From: Agromyces ramosus
Lineage (GTDB): Bacteria; Actinomycetota; Actinomycetes; Actinomycetales; Microbacteriaceae
Reading direction: 5' to 3'
DNA length: 64,000 nucleotides
NCBI RefSeq assembly: GCF_030817175.1
Contig: NZ_JAUSYY010000001.1
Span: forward strand, 3,658,001-3,722,000
Shown here: positions 42,730 to 49,976 of the stretch, piece after piece
Position numbering within the stretch: the first letter of the stretch is position 1
How the letters are laid out: the number at the start of each line of letters is the position of its first letter
The notes under the pieces: generated by a model
The model's database searches: none
What the model saw: the letters and a program-made list of their open reading frames with translations, nothing else
What the model was told of the DNA's origin: nothing
Made by a program: the position numbers and the translations under genes

Positions 42730-43680
42730 CTAGGGGAGGATTCCGAGCATCGCGATGCCGGCGACGACGGGCACGGCGACCAGGGCGACGGATGCCACGA
42801 GCACCGCGACTCGGACGCCGCTGCCGAGCGGCGCGGCGTCACCGTCACGGTCGCCGCCGTCGAGTCGCGCAAGCCGCGCCGTGAGCATCTCGGCGTCGGG
42901 CGCCACGCCGCCGGTGTCGGCGTAGGCGCCGGGTTCACCGCCGCTGCCGAGCCGCAGCAGCGCCGAGCGGAGCGCAGCATCGCCGGCAGTCCGGCGTGCG
43001 CCGTCGTCGGCGAGCATCTCGGTGAGCACGACGACCGAGCGCTCCGCGCGATTCGCGATCGGGAACCAGGGGAGGGCGCTGTGCCATGCCCGGAACGCGA
43101 GCAGCACGAGGTGATGGAGTTGTTCGAGGTGCGCGCGCTCGTGGGCGATGACGGCGGCGAGCTCCCGAGGCTCGAGGGTGCGCACGAGGCCCTCGGTGAG
43201 CACGGTCGTCGTGCGGATGCCCGGCACGCAATAGGCCAGCGGCACCGGATGGGCGAGGACGCGCGTGCCGGGCTCGCCCGGCATCGGGTCGCTCAGGAGG
43301 TCGATCAACTGGTGCTGGCGCCGCCGTTCGCGCTCGGCGCGCACCGCGGTGAGCGCGAGGCTCAGGCCGAGGTGAACGGCGAGACCGGCGGCGAGGGTGA
43401 GGGCTGCGACCTGGATGACGCCGAAGGCGGCCGGCATCGGCCCCGCAGTGAATGCGGGGATGAGGTCGGCGGCCGCGGCAAGGAGAGAACCCGCCGGTGC
43501 CGCTCCGAAGGCGATGAGGGATCCGATCATCGACAGACCGCCGGCGAGCGCGATCGCCTGCCACAGTCCGAGCGCAACCGCGGGGGAGCGTGCGGGCCAC
43601 GCCGCTCGCGAGAGCGCCACCGGGATCGGCCACGCCAGGGCGACCGCGAGCACGCCGAGGATGACGGCGATGGCGAGCAT
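42730..43680 (-). CDS. M56 family membrane metallopeptidase (BlaR-like)
   Basis: A 316-residue integral membrane protease. Four hydrophobic segments flank a cytoplasmic zinc protease domain with HERAH (HExxH) and a downstream glutamate in VLTEMLADDGAR. It lacks the extracellular penicillin-binding sensor domain of full BlaR1/MecR1. It therefore resembles the short actinobacterial partner of BlaI (Rv1845c type). It starts 2 bp after the blaI stop, so the two are one operon. It is expected to cleave or relieve the BlaI repressor in response to an unknown envelope signal. Confidence 0.9.
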   Translation of the reverse strand: MLAIAVILGVLAVALAWPIPVALSRAAWPARSPAVALGLWQAIALAGGLSMIGSLIAFGAAPAGSLLAAAADLIPAFTAGPMPAAFGVIQVAALTLAAGLAVHLGLSLALTAVRAERERRRQHQLIDLLSDPMPGEPGTRVLAHPVPLAYCVPGIRTTTVLTEGLVRTLEPRELAAVIAHERAHLEQLHHLVLLAFRAWHSALPWFPIANRAERSVVVLTEMLADDGARRTAGDAALRSALLRLGSGGEPGAYADTGGVAPDAEMLTARLARLDGGDRDGDAAPLGSGVRVAVLVASVALVAVPVVAGIAMLGILP

Positions 43681-43682
43681 CG

Positions 43683-44057
43683 TCAGGATCGCGCGAGATC
43701 GTCGAGGAGCCTGCGCAACGTTGCGGCCTCACCGTCGCTCGCGGTGCCGACGAAGCGGGCGAGTGCCGCATCGCGATCGCTCGCACGATCGAGGACCTCG
43801 TGCATGAGCTCGGCGGTGTGCTCCTCGCGGCTGAGGAGCGCGCGGTAACGGTGCGGACGCACGTCGCGAGCCCGGGTGACGAAGCCCTTGCGCTCGAGTC
43901 GCGAGAGCACGGTGAGCACGGTGGTGATCGCGACGGCATGGCCGGGCTCGTCGCCGCGGAGGGCGAGCGAGTCGCGAAGCTCGTTCGACGTGAGGGCGCC
44001 GTCGTTCGACCAGAGCACCTCCATCACGGAGCGTTCGAGATCGCCGAGACTCGCCAT
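43683..44057 (-). CDS. BlaI/MecI/CopY family transcriptional repressor
   Basis: A 124-residue penicillinase-repressor family protein. The winged helix (LGDLERSVMEVLWSNDGALTSNELRDSL..VAITTVLTVLSRLERKGFVTRARD..HRYRALLSREE) occupies residues 4-80 and a dimerisation helix region follows. It lies directly opposite cydA, and two palindromes sit between the two starts. ATG 44057 follows a TAGTCT box by 6 nt, suggesting a leaderless, autoregulated mRNA. Confidence 0.94.
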   Translation of the reverse strand: MASLGDLERSVMEVLWSNDGALTSNELRDSLALRGDEPGHAVAITTVLTVLSRLERKGFVTRARDVRPHRYRALLSREEHTAELMHEVLDRASDRDAALARFVGTASDGEAATLRRLLDDLARS

Positions 44058-44063
44058 GGCTCC

Positions 44064-44069
44064 AGACTA
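44064..44069 (-). promoter_or_regulatory. -10 box, leaderless blaI-family mRNA
   Basis: TAGTCT on the minus strand ends 6 nt before ATG 44057. Palindrome 1 (44088-44104) overlaps where the -35 element would lie. Confidence 0.55.
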
Positions 44070-44087
44070 CCGTCGGAACGCCAGATG

Positions 44088-44104
44088 TTCTACGCTGTGT
44101 AGAA
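44088..44104. promoter_or_regulatory. Operator palindrome 1, blaI-cydA gap
   Basis: TTCTACGCTGTGTAGAA is a perfect inverted repeat of TTCTAC around a 5-bp centre. It is the best candidate binding site for the adjacent BlaI-family repressor. Confidence 0.7.
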
Positions 44105-44110
44105 AGCGAG

Positions 44111-44127
44111 TTCTACGCATTGTAGAA
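44111..44127. promoter_or_regulatory. Operator palindrome 2, blaI-cydA gap
   Basis: TTCTACGCATTGTAGAA repeats the same half-sites 23 bp from palindrome 1, about two helical turns. It lies 37 bp before the cydA start, placed to block cydA transcription. Confidence 0.7.
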
Positions 44128-44164
44128 CTGTAGCCGCGGCCGGCGGCGCGTGAAAGGGGCATCC

Positions 44165-45577
44165 GTGAACGAACTGCTCGATCCGCTCCTGCTCGCCCGT
44201 TGGCAGTTCGGGCTGACGACGGTCTATCACTTCCTCTTCGTGCCGCTCACGATCGGCCTCGCGACCACCGCCGCCGTCTTCCAGACCGCCTGGTATCGCA
44301 CCGGCAAGGCGGAGTACCTCGGCATCACGAAGTTCTTCGGCTCGATCTTCCTCATCAACTTCGCCATGGGCGTCGTCACCGGCATCGTGCAGGAATTCCA
44401 GTTCGGCATGAACTGGTCGGAGTACTCGCGCTTCGTCGGCGACGTGTTCGGTGCCCCGCTCGCACTCGAAGGGCTGCTCGCGTTCTTCTTCGAGGCGACG
44501 TTCATCGGCCTCTGGATCTTCGGCTGGGACAAGCTCCCGCGTGGCGTGCACCTCGCCACGATCTGGGCGACCGCCGTCGGCTCCATCGCCTCTGCGTACT
44601 TCATCATCGCGGCGAACGCGTTCATGCAGAACCCCGTCGGCTACGAGATGAACGCCGAGAAGGGCCGCGCCGAGCTCGTCGACATCGGCGCCCTGCTCAC
44701 CAACCCGGTGGCGGTGGCCGCGTTCCCGCACACCATCGCGGCGAGCTTCATGGTCGCGGCCGGGCTCGTCATCAGCGCCGCGGCGTGGCACCTCGCGCGC
44801 AACCAGCACCTCGACACCATGCGGCCCGCGCTGAAGTTCGGCCTCTGGGTCATGGTGGGCGCCGGCATCCTGACGACCGTCTTCGGCGACCAGCTGAGCC
44901 TCGCGATGGTCGCGACCCAGCCGATGAAGATGGCCGCGGCCGAAGCCACCTACGAGACGGTGTGCGGAGCGGATGCCTCGTTCTCGCTCTTCACGCTCGG
45001 CACGCCCGATGGCTCCAGCGAGCTCTTCTCGATCCGCGTGCCCTATCTGCTCTCGTTCCTCTCGACCCACACGTTCGACGGGTGCGTCGAGGGCATCAAC
45101 GACCTGCAGGGCCAGTACGAGATGCTCTACGGGCCGGGCGACTACACGCCGATCATCTGGATCACCTACTGGTCGTTCCGCTGGATGATCGGGCTCGGCA
45201 TGGCGCACGTGCTCGTCGCGGTGATCGGCCTCTGGCTCACGCGCAAGGGGCGCATGCCGAAGCGGCCCTGGGTGTGGAAGATCGCGATCTGGAGCTTCCC
45301 GCTCTCACTCGCGGCGATGATCGTCGGCTGGATCTTCACCGAGATGGGCCGGCAGCCGTGGATCGTGTTCAGCCTGCTGCCGACCGAGTCGGCGGTGTCG
45401 CCGAACGTGACCGGGCTCGACGTGCTCATCTCGCTCGTCGCCTTCACCCTGGTCTACGGCACGCTCGCGGTGGTCGAGGCCCGACTCGTGGTGCGCGCCA
45501 TCCGCAACGGTCCGCCCGAGGTCGGCGAGCCCGACCCCGAGACCGGCCGCGTCGAACCGGCCACGACCGTCTACTAG
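44165..45577 (+). CDS. cydA: Cytochrome bd ubiquinol oxidase subunit I
   Basis: A 470-residue membrane haem protein, the quinol-oxidising subunit of the high-affinity terminal oxidase. The early histidine in LLLARWQFGLTTVYHFLF and GRQPW in FTEMGRQPWIVFS are diagnostic. About nine helices are visible, and the Q loop is of the short type. GTG 44165 is chosen because AAGGGG lies correctly before it. GTG 44150 is also open. The BlaI-type operators just upstream suggest repression until a signal is received. Confidence 0.96.
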   Translation: MNELLDPLLLARWQFGLTTVYHFLFVPLTIGLATTAAVFQTAWYRTGKAEYLGITKFFGSIFLINFAMGVVTGIVQEFQFGMNWSEYSRFVGDVFGAPLALEGLLAFFFEATFIGLWIFGWDKLPRGVHLATIWATAVGSIASAYFIIAANAFMQNPVGYEMNAEKGRAELVDIGALLTNPVAVAAFPHTIAASFMVAAGLVISAAAWHLARNQHLDTMRPALKFGLWVMVGAGILTTVFGDQLSLAMVATQPMKMAAAEATYETVCGADASFSLFTLGTPDGSSELFSIRVPYLLSFLSTHTFDGCVEGINDLQGQYEMLYGPGDYTPIIWITYWSFRWMIGLGMAHVLVAVIGLWLTRKGRMPKRPWVWKIAIWSFPLSLAAMIVGWIFTEMGRQPWIVFSLLPTESAVSPNVTGLDVLISLVAFTLVYGTLAVVEARLVVRAIRNGPPEVGEPDPETGRVEPATTVY

Positions 45578-45589
45578 GAGGAAACGCGC

Positions 45590-46594
45590 ATGGATCTGTC
45601 GGTGCTCTGGTTCTGGATCGTCGCCTTCCTCTTCATCGGGTACTTCGTGCTCGACGGGTTCGACTTCGGCGTCGGGATGTCGCTGCCCTTCCTCGGCCGC
45701 GACGAGACCGACCGCCGTGTGCTCATCAACACGATCGGACCGGTCTGGGACCTGAACGAGACGTGGGTCATCGTCGCCGGCGCCTCGCTGTTCGCGGCCT
45801 TCCCCGAGTGGTACGCGACGCTCTTCTCGGGGTTCTACCTCGCGTTGCTGCTGATCCTCCTCGCGCTCATCGCGCGCGGCGTCTCGTTCGAGTACCGCCA
45901 CCAGCGGCCCGAGTCGAGGTGGAAGCGATCGTTCGACCGCATGATCATCGTCGGATCCGCCGTGCCGGCGTTCCTCTGGGGGGTCGCGTTCGCGAACATC
46001 GTGCAGGGGGTCCCGCTCGACGCCGGACACAACTACACGGGCACGCTGCTCGATCTCCTGAATCCGTACGCGCTCCTCGGCGGAGCGACGACACTCCTCC
46101 TGTTCTTCACGCACGGCGTCGTCTTCGTCTCACTCAAGACCGAGGGAGAGTTGCGCGAACGCGCACGCCGCCTCGCCGCGCGGTCGGGATTCATCGCGAT
46201 CGTCGTCGCGGCGGCGTTCCTCGCCTGGACGGGGCTCGCATTCGGCGCCCCCTGGTTCTGGGGCTTCGCCGCCGCAGCGGCGATCGCCCTCGTCGCCGGC
46301 TGGCTCGCCAACGCCGGGGGCGCCGAGGGCCTCGCGTTCAGCCTGCTCGCGATCACCACCGCTGCCGCGGTGCTCGCCCTGTTCTCGGCGTTGTTCCCCG
46401 AGGTCATGCCCGCGTCGAACGACCCGGCGAACAGCCTCACGATCGAGAACGCCTCGAGCTCGACCTACACGCTCACCGTCATGAGCTGGACGGCGCTCAT
46501 CTTCTTTCCGCTCGTGCTCGCGTACCAGGGCTGGACCTACTGGGTCTTCCGCAAGCGCGTGACGCGGGCCTCCATCGAAGCCGCAGCGCACTGA
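45590..46594 (+). CDS. cydB: Cytochrome bd ubiquinol oxidase subunit II
   Basis: A 334-residue membrane subunit with about eight helices. LWFWIVAFLFIGYFVLDGFDFGVGM at the start and NTIGPVWDLNETWVI are characteristic of CydB. ATG 45590 has the strong Shine-Dalgarno AGGAGG 12 bp after cydA. It forms the oxidase heterodimer with CydA. Confidence 0.96.
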   Translation: MDLSVLWFWIVAFLFIGYFVLDGFDFGVGMSLPFLGRDETDRRVLINTIGPVWDLNETWVIVAGASLFAAFPEWYATLFSGFYLALLLILLALIARGVSFEYRHQRPESRWKRSFDRMIIVGSAVPAFLWGVAFANIVQGVPLDAGHNYTGTLLDLLNPYALLGGATTLLLFFTHGVVFVSLKTEGELRERARRLAARSGFIAIVVAAAFLAWTGLAFGAPWFWGFAAAAAIALVAGWLANAGGAEGLAFSLLAITTAAAVLALFSALFPEVMPASNDPANSLTIENASSSTYTLTVMSWTALIFFPLVLAYQGWTYWVFRKRVTRASIEAAAH

Positions 46595-46596
46595 CC

Positions 46597-48234
46597 GTGA
46601 CGCCACTCGATCCGAGACTCCTCCGTCGCTCGCGCGCCGCCCGCGGGTTCCTCGTCGCCGGCGGCGCGCTCGCCGTCGGGCAGGCTGCGGCGATCCTCGC
46701 CTTCGCGTGGGCGCTCGCCTCCCTCGTCGCGGGCGTGATCGATGGCATGCGGATGTCACAGGCGTTGCCACTCCTCGTCGTCCTCGTGGCGGCGGCATCC
46801 GCTCGGGCCCTCACCGCGTGGCTCTGGGACCTCGCGGGTTCAGCGGGGGCGATGCGCGTGAAGGCGGAACTCCGCCGCGATGTCCTCGAGCTGCTCGAAC
46901 GGCGGCCGGGCGGCGTGCCCGGCTTCCCGACCGCCCGCATCGCGACCCTCCTCGGCCCGGGCCTCGACGCGCTCGACGAGTACTTCGGGCGGTATCTCCC
47001 GCAGCTCGTGCTCACGGTCATCGCGACGCCGCTGCTCATCGCCGCGGCGTGGATCGCCGACCCGCTGTCAGGCCTCGTGCTCGTGCTCGTGCTGCCGCTC
47101 ATCCCGGTGTTCATGGCGCTCATCGGCATGGCCACCGAAGCGGTGCAGCGGCGCCAGTGGGAGAGCCTCGCGTCGCTCTCCCGCGGATTCCTCGAGGTGG
47201 TGGGCGGACTCTCGACGCTCGCCGTGTTCGGGCGCGCGGAGCGCCAGACGAGCCGAATCCGCGACGTCACCGACGACTATCGCTCACGCACGATGAAGGT
47301 GCTCCGCATCACGTTCCTCTCGGGGTTCACCCTCGAGCTCGCGGCGAGCCTCTCGGTCGCGCTCGTCGCCGTGTCGATCGGCCTCCGGCTCGTCGGCGGC
47401 GACCTGACGCTCGCGCCGGGGCTCTTCGTGCTCGTGCTCGCACCCGAGGTCTTCGTGCCGCTGCGGAACGTGGGTGCGGCGTTCCACGCCTCAGCGGCCG
47501 GAGTGGCGGCATCGTCGGACGCATTCGATCTGCACGTGGCCGCCGGCGAGTCGGCGGCACCTGCGCCCGGCGATCACGATCGCGGTCCCGACCGGCGAGG
47601 CGCGCGGCACGAAGGGCTCATCGTGCGCGACGTGCGCGTTCGACGCGGGGAGCGCGTCGTGCTCGACGGCTTCGACCTCGAGGCGCGACCGGGGGAACTC
47701 GTTGCGATCACCGGCGAGAGCGGCTCGGGCAAGTCGAGCCTCTTCGCCGCCATCCTCGGTTTCGCCGACTCCGAGGGCGAGCTCCGCCTCGCGGGACGGC
47801 CGCTGCAGCCGGGCGACCGGTCGGCGATCGCGTGGTCGGGGCAGGCTCCGGCGCTCTTCGAGGGGACCATCGCCGAGAACGTGCGCCTGGGCGACGAGCA
47901 CGCCGGCCGCCATCACCTCACTCGCGCGCTGCTGATCGCGGGGGTCGAACTCGATCCCGAGCGGCGCCTCGGCCCAGCGGGCGCCGGCCTCTCGGGCGGG
48001 CAGGCGCAGCGGGTGGCGACGGCACGTGCGATCCACCGGCTGCTCGCCCGCGACGGTCGGCTCCTCCTGCTCGACGAGCCGACATCCGCACAGGACGCCG
48101 ACCGAGAGTCGGAATTCGCCGCACGCCTTCGGCGGCTCACCGATGAGGGCCGCGTGGTCGTCCTCTCGACGCACCGATCGGCGCTGAGCGATGCGGCCGA
48201 TCGATCGATCGAACTGGCGGCGGCGCATGTCTGA
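46597..48234 (+). CDS. cydD: Heterodimeric thiol reductant ABC exporter subunit CydD
   Basis: A 545-residue ABC half-transporter: six-helix membrane domain (residues about 15-300) then an ATPase domain. Walker A is TGESGSGKSSL, the signature LSGGQAQRVATARA, Walker B LLLLDEPTSAQD, and the H-loop STHRS. CydDC exports glutathione or cysteine-type reductants and is needed to assemble cytochrome bd. GTG 46597 begins 2 bp after cydB. It overlaps cydC by 8 bp. Confidence 0.94.
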   Translation: MTPLDPRLLRRSRAARGFLVAGGALAVGQAAAILAFAWALASLVAGVIDGMRMSQALPLLVVLVAAASARALTAWLWDLAGSAGAMRVKAELRRDVLELLERRPGGVPGFPTARIATLLGPGLDALDEYFGRYLPQLVLTVIATPLLIAAAWIADPLSGLVLVLVLPLIPVFMALIGMATEAVQRRQWESLASLSRGFLEVVGGLSTLAVFGRAERQTSRIRDVTDDYRSRTMKVLRITFLSGFTLELAASLSVALVAVSIGLRLVGGDLTLAPGLFVLVLAPEVFVPLRNVGAAFHASAAGVAASSDAFDLHVAAGESAAPAPGDHDRGPDRRGARHEGLIVRDVRVRRGERVVLDGFDLEARPGELVAITGESGSGKSSLFAAILGFADSEGELRLAGRPLQPGDRSAIAWSGQAPALFEGTIAENVRLGDEHAGRHHLTRALLIAGVELDPERRLGPAGAGLSGGQAQRVATARAIHRLLARDGRLLLLDEPTSAQDADRESEFAARLRRLTDEGRVVVLSTHRSALSDAADRSIELAAAHV

Positions 48235-49976
48235 TCCGACCCGCGCGATGCTTCGCACCGCGATCCCTCCCTTCCGGCGGCTCCTGCCCTCGGTGGTGCT
48301 CGGCGTCGCCTCTGCGGGTTCGAGCGTGGCGCTGCTCGCCTGCGCGGCCTGGCTCATCGCGCGCGCGGCCGAGCAGCCGCCGGTGCTCTACCTCTCGCTC
48401 GGCATCGTCGGTGTTCGGGCCTTCGCACTCGGGCGAGCCGTCTTCCGGTACCTCGAGCGGCTGACCGGCCACGACGCCTCCTTCCGTCAGCTCGCCGCCA
48501 TTCGCGCGGGCATCTTCGAACGGATGCTCCCGCTCGCGCCCGACGGCCTCGCCGCGAGTCGCCGGGGCGACCTGCTCACGCGCTTCGTCGACGATGTCGA
48601 CGAGCTGCAGAACGTGCCCCTCCGGGTCGTGCAACCGATCGTGAGCGCGGTCATCGTCCTCGCGCTGGCGGTCGTCGGCATCGCGGTGCTCGCTCCTGCG
48701 GCGGCCGTACCGGTGCTCGCCTGTCTCGTCGCCGGCATCGGGGCGGCCCTCGTCGTGCAGCATCGCTCCGCCGGCCGGGCGCAGCGACGGCTCGCGCTGC
48801 TGCGCGGCGAGTTGCAGGCGGCGATCGTCGAGCACGTGCAGGCGCTCGACGTGCTCGTCGCGTTCGATGCGGCGGACACCCGGCGCCGGCGCATCGAGCA
48901 ACTGGGCGAGCGGCTCGCACGAGCCACGCGCTCGAGGGCCGCCGCGACGGGCGTGGCATCCGCCGCCATGACGGCCGTCGGGGGCATCGCCGTCGCGGCG
49001 AGTCTCACTGCGGCAGTGCCGCTCCTCGAGGCGGAACGCATCTCGGGGCCGGTCTTCGCGGTGCTCTGCCTCGTGCCGCTCGCGATCGCCGAGGTCGCAT
49101 CGGCCGTGCCCCTCGCCGTCAGCGCGTACCGCCAGGCGCGGCCGAGCGCCGAACGCGTCGCGACTGCGGTGCCGGCGCTGCTGCCTGCCGGCATCCCGAC
49201 GCGGCCCGTGGTACCCACCGAGCTCGCGTCGACGCCGGCGCACCCGCCCGCGATCGTACTGGGCGGCGTCCGCGCGGAATGGCCGGCTCTGGCCGGGGCG
49301 GCCGTCCTCGAACGCCCGGTGCCGCACGTCGATGGGCCGCACTCCGCCGGACTCGACGGCCTCGACCTCGCGCTCGCGCCGGGGGAGCGGGTGCTCGTGC
49401 GGGGCGGATCCGGGGCGGGCAAGACCACGCTCGCGCACGTCCTCGTGCGGTTCCTCGACTACGCGGGCTCCTACCGCCTCGACGGGGTCGAAGCGGCGAC
49501 CCCTCGAACCTGCGGCCGTGCGCCGGCTCGTCGGACTCGTCGAGCAGAGCCCATGGCTCTTCGACGAGAGCGTTCGCCAGAACCTGCTCTTCGCCCGCGA
49601 GTCCGCGAGCGACGAGGAGCTCCTCGACGTGCTCGATCGGGTGGGCCTGCTCGAGTGGGTCGGCGAGCGCGGCGGACTCGACGCGAAGGTCGGCGAGCGT
49701 GGCGCGCTCGTCTCGGGCGGACAGGCGCAGCGCATCGCGCTCGCCCGAGCGATGCTCGCCGAGTTCCCGGTGCTCGTCCTCGATGAGCCCACGGCGAACG
49801 TCGACCCGGCACGCGCCGACGCGCTGGTGCGCGAGCTGATGCACTCGGCGAGCCGCTCGGGCGGCACGGTGGTGCTCATCTCCCACGCGCCCGTCGACGA
49901 GTCGCTCGTCGACCGGGTCGTGACGATCGAGGCGGGTCGAGCCACGACCGACCGGGAGCCCGTGGCCGCGTCCTAG
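48227..49976 (+). pseudogene. cydC: CydC exporter subunit with an apparent 1-bp frameshift
   Basis: ATG 48227 opens a second ABC half-transporter with a six-helix membrane domain and Walker A GGSGAGKTT. The frame breaks at the CCCC run 49500-49503. Reading on without a shift gives Arg-rich nonsense to 49786. Dropping one C restores ATLEPAAVRRLVGLVEQSPW and the whole rest of the ATPase: signature SGGQAQRIALARA, Walker B VLVLDEPTANVD and H-loop ISHAP, ending at 49976. All motifs are intact outside the single base, so a sequencing error, a very recent mutation, or programmed frameshifting are the options. The restored product would be about 582 residues, normal for CydC. Confidence 0.85.

What the first reader, a model, noticed from the sequence alone, without database searches (positions are those of the whole stretch)
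43683..49976. BlaI/M56 regulator pair faces cydABDC across two near-identical operators
A BlaI-family repressor and a sensorless M56 protease are divergent from the cytochrome bd operon. The 107-bp gap holds two TTCTAC-N5-GTAGAA palindromes 23 bp apart (44088-44104 and 44111-44127). One overlaps the repressor's own promoter and the other lies just before cydA. BlaI/BlaR pairs are best known for beta-lactamase control, and in M. tuberculosis BlaI has also been linked to ATP synthase genes. No beta-lactamase is present here. The arrangement implies that a wall- or membrane-stress signal switches on the high-affinity terminal oxidase, linking envelope damage to respiration.
Basis: partly seen in the sequence, partly recalled or inferred. 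Interest (0 to 1): 0.72.

Follow-up and report, generated by a model that had tools for sequence, protein, structure and literature searches.

The report
Dedicated repressor switch for cytochrome bd
A repressor and membrane protease pair best known from antibiotic resistance sits face to face with the genes for a back-up respiratory oxidase, and the DNA sites between them are kept across distant actinobacteria and recur beside other respiration and heme genes, which points to a respiratory rather than a cell-wall switch.

Summary
In an Agromyces genome, blaI and a BlaR1-like protease gene without a sensor domain diverge from cydABDC across two perfect TTCTAC-N5-GTAGAA palindromes, the only exact copies in 4.01 Mb. 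Arrangement and operators recur in five other named genera from Subtercola to Frankia: 68 of 71 loci have a site with at most 1 mismatch within 260 bp of blaI. In 394 genomes of the class, tandem operators occur in 20 (reversed control 0); in 19 they lie before cydA, 6 times without blaI in the fetched stretch. A sister operator, TACKAC-N5-GTMGTA, lies before 19 of 19 cydA genes in a family I take for Mycobacteriaceae, where blaI is elsewhere. Repressor residues 48, 55 and 62 change with operator type. Many further sites precede flavohemoglobin, aa3 oxidase or heme-synthesis genes, some do not. BlaI control of cytochrome bd is strongly supported by sequence. A wall-stress signal is not; a respiratory, heme or NO signal fits better but is unproven. 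Binding and cleavage were not tested. BlaI binding at cyd in M. tuberculosis has been reported, so this is a new variant of a known kind.

The parts
43683..44057 (-). blaI-family repressor gene (124 aa, no cysteine)
   Evidence: PF03965 81.2 bits; nearest solved structure 2g9w; profile also hits MecI 1okr/1sd6 and BlaI 1sd4
42730..43680 (-). BlaR1-like membrane zinc metalloprotease, HExxH 180-184, E221, no sensor domain (316 aa)
44088..44104 (.). operator 1, TTCTAC-N5-GTAGAA
   Evidence: conserved near blaI in relatives
44111..44127 (.). operator 2, TTCTAC-N5-GTAGAA
   Evidence: by a relaxed pattern 18 of 29 named Agromyces loci have two sites and 11 have one
44165..45577 (+). cydA, cytochrome bd subunit I
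   Evidence: PF01654 523.7 bits; PDB 7d5i/7nkz
45590..46594 (+). cydB, cytochrome bd subunit II
   Evidence: PF02322 359.7 bits
46597..48234 (+). cydD, ABC exporter half (545 codons from GTG 46597)
   Evidence: frame and start; name by position and recall, not domain-tested
48191..49976 (+). cydC, ABC exporter half, lying in two reading frames that meet between about 49478 and 49521
   Evidence: ABC_membrane and first part of ABC_tran in 48191-49783, rest of ABC_tran in 49332-49973

Best explanation
This is a self-regulated repressor switch dedicated to cytochrome bd. Dimers of the BlaI-family repressor bind the one to several 17-bp operators (TTCTAC-N5-GTAGAA) between blaI and cydA and hold down both cydABDC and blaI plus protease. 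The neighbouring membrane zinc protease, a BlaR1-like core without the beta-lactam sensor, is activated by some state of the membrane or respiratory chain, cuts the repressor near the conserved R101-F102 and lets the oxidase genes be expressed. The signal is more likely respiratory (NO, blocked aa3 oxidase, low oxygen, heme or redox imbalance) than wall damage. Shown by sequence: architecture, operators, their conservation, their presence before cydA without blaI next door, and repressor-operator co-variation. Inferred: binding, repression, cleavage and signal.
For: Two exact sites in the genome, both in the gap, control 0. 71 named loci: CydA found in 67, divergent within 260 bp of blaI in 57; site with at most 1 mismatch in 68, reversed control 0; 42 distinct spacers among 86 exact sites. 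Linkage holds while CydA identity falls from 94% to about 27%. Order sample of 119 genomes: 33 of 59 BlaI-like matches are divergent and close to cydA; 28 of the 30 gaps fetched carry either operator form, 0.005 expected after shuffling. Class: tandem sites in 20 of 394 genomes, control 0, 19 before cydA. Family f11 (taken as Mycobacteriaceae): sister operator before 19 of 19 cydA. Residues L48/E55/R62 against M48/A55/Q62 follow the two operator forms. Respiratory and heme targets: 8 of 13 Agromyces flavohemoglobin genes have an exact site, 10 of 13 with one mismatch allowed; ctaC-ctaD in 6 of 6 Subtercola genomes searched; hemQ-hemH in the one Psychromicrobium genome. Literature: BlaI binds cyd and ATP synthase promoters in M. 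tuberculosis, as reported second-hand in PMC5473688 (passages).
Against: No binding, cleavage or expression data were found for this genus. 2 of 30 order-sample gaps carry neither operator form, and 3 of 71 named loci have none with at most 1 mismatch. The three cydA genes without adjacent BlaI that I fetched lack the operator, so cyd can do without it. 26 of 59 BlaI-like matches in the order sample are not divergent neighbours of cydA; 5 of them lie downstream of a cydA on the same strand and others may be paralogues. cydC looks frameshifted in this assembly. The signal is argued only from targets; some further sites lie by SRAP, PPK2, FAD-monooxygenase and unnamed membrane-protein genes, one by a PASTA-domain gene. 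Shared ancestry may explain part of the co-variation.
Confidence: 0.72

Rival explanations
1. One reading: the protease senses wall or membrane damage and turns on cytochrome bd as part of an envelope-stress response.
For: The family is best known from beta-lactam control; in M. tuberculosis amoxicillin-clavulanate raises blaI-blaR and cydAB (PMC5473688 passages); one Frankia site lies beside a PASTA-domain gene.
Against: No penicillin-binding sensor domain; no close operator at the genome's PF13354 genes; the clearly named extra targets in Agromyces, Subtercola and Psychromicrobium are not wall genes.
Confidence: 0.17
2. The pair senses heme, or copper and iron supply, and matches heme-protein production to cofactor supply. 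This overlaps with the best explanation and differs in the signal.
For: Several extra targets are heme enzymes or heme-synthesis genes (hmp, ctaCD, hemQ-hemH, hemE) plus CopC/CopD in Frankia; M. tuberculosis blaR is essential on hemin or hemoglobin (PMC7058343 passages).
Against: No heme- or metal-sensing motif was identified in either protein (none was searched for beyond the domain libraries); the repressor has no cysteine, unlike CopY (recalled); cyd control is explained as well by respiratory stress.
Confidence: 0.25
3. The palindromes serve only autoregulation of blaI and the protease; cydA is merely next door.
For: Two genomes of family f2 with BlaI and no CydA match at E 1e-30 keep one operator before blaI (L266, L267).
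Against: Operators lie before cydA with no BlaI in the fetched stretch in 6 of 20 tandem loci and before 19 of 19 cydA genes of family f11; where blaI lies downstream of cydA, 4 of 5 cydA upstream regions have sites and 0 of 5 blaI upstream regions do.
Confidence: 0.03

Closest known systems
Mycobacterium tuberculosis BlaI/BlaR (Rv1846c/Rv1845c)
   Same: Closest solved BlaI relative is 2g9w (recalled as this protein); sensor domain absent from mycobacterial BlaR and BlaI reported at cyd and ATP synthase promoters (PMC5473688 passages, citing Sala 2009, which I could not read).
   Different: In family f11, taken as Mycobacteriaceae, blaI is not next to cydA and the operator is TACKAC-N5-GTMGTA, not TTCTAC-N5-GTAGAA; the reported regulon is wider (blaC, ATP synthase).
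Staphylococcus BlaI-BlaR1 / MecI-MecR1
   Same: Penicillinase_R repressor next to a membrane gluzincin protease; Foldseek and VIA-align place the protease with BlaR1; F102 aligns with a MecI phenylalanine (cleavage site recalled).
   Different: No penicillin-binding sensor domain; the target is cytochrome bd; half-sites are TAC-N5-GTA, while the staphylococcal core is TAC-N4-GTA (recalled).
Other cyd or hmp regulators: Rex in Streptomyces (PMC5355995, search listing only), NsrR circuits (recalled)
   Same: Control terminal oxidases or flavohemoglobin in response to redox or NO.
   Different: Unrelated DNA-binding proteins that sense the signal directly (recalled); here a membrane protease would relay it.

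Membership tests
BlaI/MecI repressor family (Penicillinase_R) | PF03965 domain above its cut-off | tested here: met
   81.2 bits, cut-off 22.6, residues 4-119
BlaI/MecI repressor family (Penicillinase_R) | gene paired with a BlaR1-like membrane protease | tested here: met
   adjacent in the window; a match to this protease follows blaI in 70 of the 71 named loci L005-L075 (all but L054, whose contig ends there)
BlaI/MecI repressor family (Penicillinase_R) | scissile Asn-Phe near residues 101-102 (recalled) | tested here: inconclusive
   F102 in 72 of 72 and R101 in 68 of 72; aligns with N-F of MecI; cleavage not tested
BlaR1/MecR1 sensor-transducer | HExxH gluzincin motif with downstream Glu | tested here: met
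   H180, E181, H184, E221 invariant in 27 aligned sequences
BlaR1/MecR1 sensor-transducer | BlaR1 fold of membrane plus protease part | tested here: met
BlaR1/MecR1 sensor-transducer | C-terminal penicillin-binding sensor domain | tested here: not met
   protein ends at residue 316 after a last helix 287-311; no such Pfam domain
Peptidase M56 by Pfam profile | match to the Pfam M56 profile | tested here: not met
   only PF01435 (M48) reported at E 1e-3
CopY/TcrY copper repressor | TIGR02698 cut-off; cysteine tail (recalled) | tested here: not met
   36.6 bits, cut-off 121.95; no cysteine in the translated sequence
cytochrome bd oxidase operon cydABDC | CydA and CydB domains plus two ABC exporter halves | tested here: inconclusive
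   PF01654 and PF02322 met; ABC domains found in the two cydC pieces; cydD named by position only

The most novel reading that the evidence does not exclude
A sensorless BlaR1-like membrane protease is the actinobacterial sensor of a failing respiratory chain (NO, blocked aa3 oxidase, heme shortage): it destroys a BlaI-type repressor whose core target across the class is cytochrome bd, joined by lineage by flavohemoglobin, aa3 oxidase and heme synthesis. BlaI/BlaR control of beta-lactamase in mycobacteria would then be a side branch of a respiratory switch.
Probability: 0.42. Interest if true: 0.8.

Novelty: new variant of a known kind. Interest (0 to 1): 0.62.

Why it matters
Cytochrome bd lets actinobacteria, including mycobacteria, survive drugs and stresses that block the main oxidase, and how it is switched on is not settled (recalled). 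A linked repressor, protease and defined operator in a harmless soil genus, with the same operator logic before cydA in a family taken to be Mycobacteriaceae, makes that question directly testable in a simple system that in this genome appears to have a single target.

Tried and rejected
Rejected: chance palindromes. Rejected: an operator at the genome's PF13354 genes, where the best sites have 3 to 4 mismatches. Rejected: CopY-type copper sensing by the repressor itself. The only one-mismatch site of the own genome that I looked at (L189, 519569) lies inside an open frame. Weak leads: in Salinibacterium, sites at an SRAP/TetR gap (3 genomes) and at PPK2 (2 genomes); in Frankia, FAD monooxygenase (3 places), a small membrane protein without Pfam match (3), CopD inside an open frame (2), two without any clear gene (L201, L204), and a ResA-like gene back to back with a PASTA-domain gene (L202). 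These do not fit a respiratory theme clearly. In Agromyces, 2 of 11 sites outside the cyd gap (G005, G018) have no clear target, and one Subtercola site (L177) has none. The Subtercola ctaC site lies just after erpA and before a terminator-like stretch (seen by eye), so its effect on ctaC is uncertain; flanks there are partly conserved too. One of 20 tandem loci (L242) is not at cydA but beside another BlaI-protease pair. No promoter or terminator was recognised in the window gap. Literature: searches listed no paper on a linked BlaI-cyd module; Sala 2009 is not open to me, so its operator could not be compared.

Limits of counts. One search listed places up to G051 only; 7 sites in G052, G053, G054, G057, G058 and G059 were not seen. 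One search listed only part of its matches; 33 places were fetched from it (13, 20), two of which (L191, L197) proved to be cydA; G080:C191, G083:C32 and the unlisted places (G074, G076, G077, G084 among them) were not examined. Domains of extra targets were tested in one example each (L175, L182, L190, L199, L202, L205, L209 and others); the other copies were recognised by their like start sequences. One search covers 30 of the 33 adjacent gaps; the other three are Agromyces. For family f11, 22 of the 30 BlaI loci fetched were used (L310-L317, lower identity, left out) and 19 of 20 CydA loci (a second fragment, L337, left out). In one search the first group is all 71 named loci, the window and 12 order loci, whether or not each has an exact site; L265, L276, L280, L284 and L291 are in neither group. 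L284 has a TTCTAC operator and, read by eye, L48 and R62 but R55. Some class-scan Frankia genomes are the same as named ones (same coordinates).
Full report

Conservation. The closest BlaI proteins come from Agromyces, and 59 of 60 genomes of the genus have one. In 71 named loci (L005-L075; 7 remote homologues of the 78 loci were left out) CydA was found in 67 and lies divergent within 260 bp in 57; nine Frankia loci have it 0.65-0.85 kb away and one 2.2 kb. CydA identity falls from 94% to about 27% while the arrangement stays. Within 260 bp of blaI, 55 of 71 have an exact operator and 68 of 71 one with at most one mismatch; the reversed control gives 0 and 0. Of the three without, two (L053, L074) also show no CydA and the third (L056) has it 2.2 kb away. 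The 86 exact sites carry 42 different spacers: arms are kept, spacers drift. By a relaxed pattern 11 of 29 named Agromyces loci have one site and 18 have two.

Unbiased scan. Two operators within 12 bases of each other occur in 20 of 394 genomes drawn evenly over the class, and the reversed pattern in none. One locus was examined per genome: 19 of 20 lie directly before cydA, and in 6 of these (L229, L230, L237-L240) no BlaI is found in the fetched stretch. The exception, L242, lies by another BlaI-protease pair. So the operator goes with cydA, not merely with blaI.

Order sample. Among 119 genomes, 47 have a BlaI-like match, 59 matches in all, and 109 have CydA. 33 of the 59 matches are divergent from cydA with starts within about 320 bp. 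Of the 30 such gaps fetched, 12 carry TTCTAC-N5-GTAGAA, 16 carry a sister form TACKAC-N5-GTMGTA, 2 carry neither; 0.005 gaps are expected after shuffling, and the reversed patterns give 0. The three cydA genes without adjacent BlaI that I fetched have neither form. In five genomes BlaI lies downstream of cydA on the same strand; there 4 of 5 cydA upstream regions carry operators and 0 of 5 blaI upstream regions do. Two genomes with BlaI but no CydA match keep one operator before blaI (L266, L267).

Mycobacteriaceae. In 20 genomes of family f11 (16 of one genus) BlaI is not next to cydA, yet TACKAC-N5-GTMGTA stands within 300 bp before cydA in 19 of 19 loci and before 18 of 22 blaI loci used (of 30 fetched), control 0. 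A BlaI of this family matches 2g9w along its whole length (209.8 bits) and a CydA is closest to 7d5i and 7nkz; I recall these as mycobacterial and so take f11 as Mycobacteriaceae. This agrees with the statement in PMC5473688 (passages) that M. tuberculosis BlaI binds the cytochrome bd and ATP synthase promoters, which cites Sala 2009 (not read).

Repressor and operator change together. In the TTCTAC group the repressors have L48 in 80 of 84, E55 in 84 of 84 and R62 in 81 of 84; in the TACKAC group M48 in 36 of 36, A55 in 35 of 36 and Q62 in 35 of 36 (five loci in neither group, of which L284, with a TTCTAC site, reads L48, R55, R62 by eye). Positions 45-57 fall in the helix-turn-helix region by recall of the fold. 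Shared ancestry may explain part of this, but the first group spans Agromyces to Frankia.

Other targets. Of 11 exact sites outside the cyd gap in the Agromyces genomes that one search listed (up to G051), 9 lie before flavohemoglobin genes in 8 genomes; two of these genes were domain-tested (Globin, FAD- and NAD-binding). Seen from the gene, 8 of 13 flavohemoglobin copies in 12 of 60 genomes have an exact site within 300 bp and 2 more have one mismatch. The window's own genome has no flavohemoglobin match at E 1e-40. In 6 of 6 Subtercola genomes searched, one extra site lies before ctaC-ctaD (COX2, COX1 tested in L175); one more Subtercola site has no clear target. In Psychromicrobium the site lies between a protoporphyrinogen-oxidase-like gene and hemQ-hemH. 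In Frankia, 18 sites outside cyd were looked at: about five by hemE or its divergent neighbour, two by CopC, two in frames by CopD, one between a ResA-like and a PASTA-domain gene, three by an FAD monooxygenase, three by a small membrane protein, two by nothing clear. In Salinibacterium they fall by SRAP/TetR and PPK2. The commonest theme is heme, terminal oxidases and NO, with exceptions.

Mechanism. I read this as repression by BlaI at cydA and blaI, lifted when the membrane protease cuts BlaI. F102 is invariant (72 of 72) and aligns with the MecI phenylalanine at the recalled cut site. What activates the protease is not shown. No sensor domain, no close operator at the genome's PF13354 genes and the target list speak for a respiratory, heme or NO cue. 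Results the other way: amoxicillin-clavulanate induces blaI-blaR and cydAB in M. tuberculosis (PMC5473688 passages), and the PASTA-domain neighbour in one Frankia. Neutral to supportive: clofazimine raises cyd and ATP synthase genes in M. abscessus (PMC8765290 passages); M. tuberculosis blaR is essential on hemin or hemoglobin (PMC7058343 passages); BlaI represses the Rv1303 homologue and binds the Rv1303 promoter (PMC12565901 passages); a sigC mutant in copper-poor medium raises cyd and ATP synthase genes (PMC7924339 passages).

Novelty. A BlaI-cyd link in M. tuberculosis is in print, so the kind is known. The searches listed no paper on the linked module, its operator, its spread through the class, or its flavohemoglobin, aa3 and heme targets; the library holds open-licence papers only.

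Noticed in passing
window 48191-49976: cydC lies in two reading frames that meet between about 49478 and 49521; either an assembly error or a broken exporter, which would leave cytochrome bd poorly assembled in this strain.
   Followed up: partly
G000:C1 3618485-3621138, 1922745-1923413, 3927682-3928083 (outside the window): Three strong PF13354 (class A beta-lactamase family) matches and one marginal; the best operator-like sites there have 3 to 4 mismatches.
   Followed up: yes
L186 1591-2043: An Rrf2-family regulator gene (NsrR-like by recall) lies beside a flavohemoglobin gene that also carries the BlaI operator, suggesting double control.
   Followed up: no
L037 and L040: One uncultured Kocuria assembly carries two copies of the blaI-protease-cyd module.
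   Followed up: no
L242 1501-1535: Tandem operators downstream of a BlaI-protease pair, before an unidentified gene; the only tandem site of 20 not at cydA.
   Followed up: partly
protease residue C151 (window gene 42730-43680): A cysteine in an AYC-PG motif is invariant in the 27 aligned proteases and in 70 of 71 in a larger set; a possible redox or NO-sensitive residue, or just a family feature.
   Followed up: no
L175, L176, L178-L181: In Subtercola the ctaC operator sits between the erpA-like gene and a terminator-like stretch, about 190-207 bp before ctaC in five of six.
   Followed up: partly
L202 1531: A Frankia operator lies between the starts of a ResA-like thioredoxin gene and a PASTA-domain protein gene.
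   Followed up: no
G000:C1:1840814-1840963 (L144, outside the window): A second, partial Penicillinase_R match just over the cut-off (24.6 bits); not examined.
   Followed up: no
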